Assembly (NCBI RefSeq): GCF_963576615.1
Contig: NC_088714.1
Coordinates: forward strand, 3,286,001-3,350,000
DNA length: 64,000 nucleotides
Direction: 5' to 3'
DNA from: Watersipora subatra
Lineage: Eukaryota; Bryozoa; Gymnolaemata; Cheilostomatida; Watersiporidae
Below are positions 21,831 to 48,657 of the stretch, piece by piece (the first letter of the stretch is position 1; the number at the start of each line of letters is the position of its first letter). Made by a program: the position numbers and the translations under genes. The notes below the pieces were generated by a model, which worked only from the letters and a program-made list of their open reading frames with translations, did no database searches and had not been told where the DNA came from.

Positions 21831-21929
21831 ATGCGAGTTTTACTTCTCTTATTTGCTTTCTACATGCCCCTGACTCCTTTAGAGAACAGCACCGATTCTC
21901 AGAACGAAATTCTCATTGAAATATCTCAG
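21831..21929 (+). CDS. RTK exon 1: signal peptide
   Basis: This exon encodes [20 protein letters not shown] and 13 further residues. A basic residue followed by a leucine/phenylalanine core is a typical signal peptide, with probable cleavage near residue 16-20. It ends in phase 0 at CAG|GTATGT. It is the only upstream exon whose frame and phase fit exon 2. Confidence 0.8.

Positions 21930-48657: not shown

What the first reader, a model, noticed from the sequence alone, without database searches (positions are those of the whole stretch)
21831..48657. Receptor tyrosine kinase with an ectodomain outside the familiar RTK classes
Phase-consistent assembly gives one complete 872-residue receptor with an intact tyrosine kinase ([11 protein letters not shown]) but no Ig, EGF, cadherin or leucine-rich repeats. 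The N-terminal module looks weakly like a WIF domain, known in RTKs only from RYK. Yet this kinase, unlike RYK, keeps a canonical DFG and glycine loop. If the WIF-like call holds, this is a catalytically active RTK with a Wnt-binding-type module, a new architecture. The kinase call is from sequence; the WIF resemblance is inference by eye.
Basis: partly seen in the sequence, partly recalled or inferred. Interest (0 to 1): 0.75.

Follow-up and report, generated by a model that had tools for sequence, protein, structure and literature searches.

The report
Orphan receptor tyrosine kinase, ectodomain unassigned
This is a complete, probably active receptor tyrosine kinase gene of an animal whose outer half matches nothing known by sequence; the suspected Wnt-binding (WIF) module is not supported, and the animal has a separate ordinary RYK gene.

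Summary
The gene is real. The WIF reading fails. Pfam finds no WIF and no fn3 in the ectodomain at E<=10. A WIF profile from three WIF domains gives it 1.5 bits, matched by 31 of 500 shuffles; genuine WIFs score 48-76 bits, and two exons of the same genome's own RYK score 20. That RYK is a separate gene on another chromosome (WIF exons, HKD/DNA pseudokinase). No second copy of the ectodomain was found in the 784-Mb genome, and no PDB relative by sequence. The kinase falls with the FGFR/PDGFR/VEGFR/RET/TIE plus Torso/Cad96Ca group (85/96), but on a long branch; RYK, MET/TAM and InsR placements are not rejected, so its class is open. Best reading: a fast-evolving RTK with an ectodomain of unknown fold, signalling conventionally: a new member of a known kind, not a catalytically active WIF receptor.

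The parts
21831..21929 (+). exon 1: start ATG and signal peptide by eye (aa 1-33)
   Evidence: in-frame stop 15 codons upstream of the ATG
23376..23501 (+). exon 2: N-terminal ectodomain module (aa 34-75)
24959..25061 (+). exon 3: stretch with [16 protein letters not shown], the WIF-like spot (aa 76-109); weakest-ranking donor of the gene
25999..26136 (+). exon 4 (aa 110-155); the part after 26045 is uncertain because of a strong alternative donor
26324..26454 (+). exon 5 (aa 156-199), least certain exon (lowest codon score of the 18)
27171..27264 (+). exon 6 (aa 200-230)
27699..27833 (+). exon 7: start of an FN3-looking stretch (aa 231-275), by eye only
   Evidence: no fn3 hit in Pfam, no PDB hit
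28736..28875 (+). exon 8 (aa 276-322)
29869..30025 (+). exon 9 (aa 323-374)
30365..30469 (+). exon 10: acidic membrane-proximal stalk (aa 375-409)
30887..31058 (+). exon 11: transmembrane helix (416-438) and juxtamembrane NPLY (Y460)
33303..33457 (+). exon 12: kinase glycine loop GSGAFG and VAAK (K515)
38003..38193 (+). exon 13: aC helix (E532) and hinge
39987..40070 (+). exon 14: end of a short kinase insert and aE
40502..40716 (+). exon 15: [11 protein letters not shown], activation-loop Y653, SVE
41663..41800 (+). exon 16: kinase aF-aG ([14 protein letters not shown])
47587..47726 (+). exon 17: end of kinase domain ([12 protein letters not shown])
48380..48657 (+). exon 18: cytoplasmic tail with YSEV (Y801), YIEI (Y846), Y850, and stop

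Best explanation
A single-copy, fast-evolving animal receptor tyrosine kinase whose ectodomain has lost, or never had, detectable sequence similarity to known modules. Shown: one open spliced frame with a hydrophobic N-terminus, an ectodomain with 10 cysteines and 10 N-glycosylation sequons, one TM segment and a kinase with its catalytic residues. Inferred: an extracellular ligand dimerises it; the kinase trans-phosphorylates its single activation-loop tyrosine (Y653); the juxtamembrane NPLY (Y460) docks a PTB adaptor of the Shc/FRS2/Dok sort and the tail sites (YSEV, YIEI) dock SH2 proteins, feeding Ras-MAPK or PI3K. It is not the RYK orthologue, and the N-terminal module is not a demonstrable WIF domain.
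For: Gene model and motifs. Kinase. No WIF, fn3 or other family in the ectodomain: Pfam, PDB. WIF profile null result with positive controls. Separate true RYK in the same genome. No second copy found: the ectodomain search of the 784-Mb own genome gave 15 hits, 11 of them exons of this gene, one a partial repeat beside exon 9 (E 4.4), and 3 at E 2.7-7.7 (the tool scores only its best candidates). The kinase search gave 83 hits, 7 of them this gene's exons; the best other is 36% identical. Tree: FGFR/PDGFR/VEGFR/RET/TEK/Torso/Cad96Ca group at 81/96 and 85/96.
Against: The query branch is long (1.6) and AU tests do not reject grouping with RYK (p 0.31, 0.29), Torso (0.33), MET/AXL/RYK plus own relatives (0.42), InsR/ROS/ALK (0.25) or Cad96Ca-like rows (0.18), so the class is open. 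No transcript, relative or structure was available: expression, exon 4-5 boundaries and fold are untested. No orthologue from another animal was seen.
Confidence: 0.72

Rival explanations
1. A catalytically active RTK with a WIF (Wnt-binding) N-terminal domain, i.e. the first reader's new architecture.
For: Local resemblance around [16 protein letters not shown] to the WIF 'P....L.FTW.A' stretch; AU test does not reject kinase grouping with RYK.
Against: No WIF hit at E<=10 in Pfam; profile score 1.5 bits with 31 of 500 shuffles >= it, against 48-76 bits for real WIFs and 20.1 bits for two exon-bearing frames of this genome's own RYK; RYK gene present separately.
Confidence: 0.05
2. A divergent orthologue of Torso (PTTH/Trunk receptor), whose ectodomain is built of FN3-like units that sequence tools barely see.
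For: Torso reported in lophotrochozoans, cnidarians and deuterostomes (PMC6660194, passages); similar total layout (recalled); kinase falls in the group holding Torso, and pairing with it is not rejected (p 0.33); exons 7-9 look FN3-like by eye.
Against: The typed fly Torso ectodomain gave this ectodomain no reported score, while 302 of 500 shuffles got one; no fn3 or FN3_Tor_3rd hit, although fly Torso gets fn3 at 2.9e-4; Torso's kinase matches other genes of this genome better over the DFG exon (C9:8330576 63%, this gene 43%); no long kinase insert.
Confidence: 0.12
3. A divergent member of the Cad96Ca/Stitcher (Ret-like) group.
For: Cad96Ca is its best typed reference (221 bits) and its sister in the first tree (66/75); the group is not rejected (p 0.18).
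Against: Two other genes in this genome, matching in single long frames (C2:75352647, C3:3682198), are far better Cad96Ca matches (E 3.5e-56 and 5.5e-53; this gene's best exon 8.4e-14) and group with it at 81/88 without the query; no cadherin hit.
Confidence: 0.08
4. Two genes or a wrong chain: ectodomain exons wrongly joined to the kinase, or exons 4b-5 spurious.
For: Exons 4b and 5 have non-coding-like codon scores; a 792-aa phase-consistent alternative exists.
Against: 17 phase-compatible junctions with high-ranking splice sites; hydrophobic N-terminus and TM in the right places.
Confidence: 0.1

Closest known systems
RYK / Derailed (WIF-domain pseudokinase receptors)
   Same: Type I receptor, single TM, tyrosine-kinase fold; superficial WIF-like FW stretch
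   Different: No detectable WIF; kinase keeps HRD and DFG; the genome has its own RYK with WIF exons and DNA in place of DFG
FGFR/PDGFR/VEGFR/RET/TIE kinases (FPVR-type group)
   Same: Kinase groups with them at 81/96 and 85/96
   Different: No Ig or cadherin hit, only a short kinase insert, long branch
Torso
   Same: Ectodomain of similar size (recalled) without strong Pfam domains; same kinase group
   Different: No Torso or fn3 profile hit, no long kinase insert, other own-genome kinases match Torso better
Cad96Ca / Stitcher
   Same: Best single typed reference kinase
   Different: Own genome has two better Cad96Ca-like kinases; no cadherin hit

Membership tests
Receptor tyrosine kinase (superfamily) | Signal peptide, single TM helix, intact tyrosine kinase domain in one frame | tested here: met
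   signal peptide judged by eye
RYK family | Extracellular WIF domain (PF02019) | tested here: not met
   No Pfam hit at E<=10 (control RYK 3.3e-47); 3-WIF profile 1.5 bits, 31 of 500 shuffles >=. Sequence level only; fold not tested
RYK family | Kinase groups with RYK | tested here: inconclusive
   Best trees put it elsewhere; AU p 0.31 and 0.29 do not reject
RYK family | Degenerate HKD / DNA motifs | tested here: not met
   HRDLAARN and DFG intact; own RYK has HKDIATRN and TDNALSRD
FGFR/PDGFR/VEGFR/RET/TIE group | Kinase clade membership | tested here: inconclusive
   81/96 and 85/96 with Torso/Cad96Ca included; alternatives not rejected
FGFR/PDGFR/VEGFR/RET/TIE group | Ig-like, cadherin or EGF ectodomain modules | tested here: not met
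   No Pfam hit at E<=10
Torso | FN3_Tor / fn3 ectodomain | tested here: not met
   No hit by sequence (31 protein 3, 46); fold not tested; own-genome PF23008 search did not complete
Torso | Response to PTTH/Trunk ligand | not testable with these tools
   needs an experiment
Cad96Ca/Stitcher | Best kinase match in the genome, and cadherin repeat | tested here: not met
   Two other own-genome loci match better; no cadherin hit

The most novel reading that the evidence does not exclude
The ectodomain is a new combination or a new ligand-binding module that arose with this RTK in one animal lineage, joined to a kinase outside the named classes: a lineage-restricted RTK class with its own unknown ligand.
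Probability: 0.25. Interest if true: 0.45.

Novelty: new member of a known kind. Interest (0 to 1): 0.3.

Why it matters
If the ectodomain is really new it would add a receptor class with an unknown ligand and show again that RTK ectodomains are swapped or invented within single lineages. As it stands, orphan RTKs with unassigned ectodomains are common in invertebrates (own knowledge, not tested), so the claim of a catalytically active Wnt-type receptor, which would have been striking, should be dropped unless a structure brings it back.

Tried and rejected
WIF domain: rejected at sequence level on Pfam, profile-with-shuffles and own-RYK comparison. The Pfam WIF search of the own genome returned nothing, but its 14 control genomes rang in none either, so it says nothing.

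FN3: exons 7-9 look like an FN3 unit by eye (TLDISW..YALRW..FNLSM..DDIIIQV), but Pfam and PDB give nothing, and a crude two-sequence FN3 profile scored 0.5 bits, with 62 of 500 shuffles as high.

Class from intron positions: the SDV|W intron was first taken as an FGFR/PDGFR-class mark (recalled), but MET-like genes of this genome show an exon break at the same place, so the argument was dropped.

Relatives: viral contigs and genome contigs held none (0 confirmed of 4 and of 15 pattern matches). No collection of other animals' genomes was on hand.

Papers: nine searches. I saw listings and abstract starts, plus found passages of PMC6660194, PMC9953206, PMC4883820, PMC11908783, PMC8662651 and PMC6982143. 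Nothing that I saw described an active WIF-RTK; the library lacks most subscription journals.

Full report
WHAT IS THERE. Exon scanning and assembly give 18 exons on the + strand from 21831 to 48657, all with GT-AG ends, in one open frame of 866 codons plus stop. Over all 17 introns the donors rank at percentiles 0.78-1.00 of 1601 GTs and the acceptors at 0.77-0.99 of 1730 AGs, by hand-set splice-site weights. An in-frame stop lies 15 codons upstream of the ATG. The chain has a hydrophobic N-terminus that reads as a signal peptide (by eye), 10 ectodomain cysteines and 10 N-glycosylation sequons, a hydrophobic segment at 416-438, and a kinase domain (Pfam PK_Tyr_Ser-Thr E 3.5e-83, residues 481-751) with GSGAFG, K515, E532, [11 protein letters not shown] and an SVE in place of APE. 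Juxtamembrane NPLY (Y460) and tail YSEV, YIEI and Y850 are candidate docking sites (function inferred).

WEAK POINT OF THE MODEL. A strong alternative donor after 26045 joins exon 6 in phase and gives a 792-residue product that skips residues ~126-199. The skipped DNA has codon scores of -0.05 (26046-26135) and -0.11 (exon 5) per codon, against a median of -0.13 and a 90th percentile of 0.10 for 3000 random open stretches of the + strand away from this gene's exons (the null includes other genes of the window). The codon table was trained on kinase and BMP exons of this window, so the higher scores of the kinase exons are partly built in. Exons 11 and 18 also score near zero, so this is a caution and not proof.

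THE WIF QUESTION. Pfam hmmscan found no family in the ectodomain or in sub-stretches at E<=10, while the human RYK WIF domain scored 3.3e-47 in the same library. A profile was built from three WIF domains: WIF1 (typed, agrees with its PDB records), RYK (typed, unchecked) and DRL-2 (read off). It scored the query ectodomain at 1.5 bits; 31 of 500 shuffles scored as high, the best 8.0. In leave-one-out tests the three WIFs scored 48-76 bits. The only aligned piece is about 24 residues around [16 protein letters not shown]. The window's own genome supplied a stricter control: a RYK gene on another contig (C10 about 34.425-34.459 Mb) with a TM exon, an exon carrying the WIF C-terminal half (14.9 bits alone), one carrying the N-terminal half (8.8 bits alone), and a pseudokinase reading HKDIATRN and VTDNALSRD, i.e. 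without HRD and DFG. The two exon-bearing frames end to end score 20.1 bits without the middle of the domain; the query stretch 19-160 scores 3.6. So WIF divergence in this species does not by itself explain the failure.

OTHER ECTODOMAIN READINGS. PDB phmmer found nothing for residues 1-415 or for the FN3-looking part at E<=10. Fly Torso's ectodomain (typed) gets fn3 at 2.9e-4 and FN3_Tor_3rd at 0.014 in Pfam, both below the curated cut-offs, while the query gets neither. In the 784-Mb own genome the ectodomain query hit 15 places: 11 exons of this gene, a partial repeat beside exon 9 (E 4.4), and three at E 2.7-7.7. As far as this exon-by-exon search can see, it is single-copy.

THE KINASE. 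Against PDB (60 of 934 sequences below E 1e-20 are listed) the best family scores are InsR/IGF1R (~213 bits), RET (207) and FGFR1 (205), with no standout; the very first row is a tandem EGFR construct whose single domain scores 152. Against 23 typed references the best are Cad96Ca (221 bits) and InsR (214), with RYK at 166. Maximum-likelihood trees place it with FGFR, PDGFR, VEGFR, KIT, RET, TEK, Torso and Cad96Ca (81/96; 85/96 with five own-genome rows), while human and own RYK pair at 100/99 and sit with MET/AXL and their own-genome relatives (94/94). Neither support is starred, the query branch is long, and AU tests reject none of the alternatives tried: RYK 0.31 and 0.29, Torso 0.33, InsR group 0.25, MET/TAM/RYK group 0.42, Cad96Ca group 0.18. 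The Cad96Ca pairing of the first tree (66/75) vanished once two own-genome Cad96Ca-like genes entered. Torso's kinase matches several other own-genome kinases better than this one. The kinase search of the own genome gave 83 hits, 7 of them this gene's exons; the best other covers most of the kinase at 36% identity.

MECHANISM. Most likely a conventional ligand-activated RTK: dimerisation, trans-phosphorylation of Y653, PTB docking at NPLY and SH2 docking in the tail. The motifs are shown; everything about signalling is inferred from established RTK biology.

COMPARISON AND NOVELTY. The part of an RTK class table that I saw lists WIF for RYK (PMC9953206, passage). Nothing here overturns that. 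Torso is reported from lophotrochozoans, cnidarians and deuterostomes (PMC6660194, passages), so a domain-poor RTK ectodomain outside the insects has precedent. The gene is a new member of a known kind with an unassigned ectodomain. About 11 large contigs and a BMP2/4-like neighbour suggest an invertebrate, possibly a bryozoan; this is speculation, and the one bryozoan with 11 chromosomes's listing has a 235-Mb genome, not 784 Mb.

Noticed in passing
window 11211-18161 (+): Exons of a ZW10 kinetochore protein gene: Zw10_middle, ZW10_C and ZW10_C2 hits in 6 of 10 open frames tried.
   Followed up: partly
window 54317-56983 (-): A BMP2/4-like TGF-beta ligand gene: mature domain E 1.3e-36 with propeptide in one frame, and a second propeptide frame upstream; the BMP2/4 label is by eye.
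   Followed up: partly
window 19939-21092, 23518-24445, 35872-37538, 51325-52344 and others: Introns and spacers are rich in long minisatellites; these four have periods of 34-64 bp and 22-30 copies.
   Followed up: no
window 29799-29926: A two-copy 65-bp tandem duplicates the intron end and start of exon 9, making decoy acceptors.
   Followed up: no
G000 C2:72.3-74.1 Mb, C2:55.4 Mb, C9:54.02-54.07 Mb, C10:33.02 Mb, C11:1.28-1.34 Mb: Many clustered kinase hits; the five stretches read (L023-L027) look MET/TAM-like by eye, suggesting a lineage-specific RTK expansion. Stops reported in the hits may only be reads into introns.
   Followed up: partly
G000 C10:34.425-34.459 Mb (L021, L022, L028, L029): A true RYK gene with divergent WIF exons and DNA in place of DFG.
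   Followed up: yes
window 32681-32802: A long imperfect inverted repeat (hairpin-like, perhaps a small DNA element), seen by eye.
   Followed up: no
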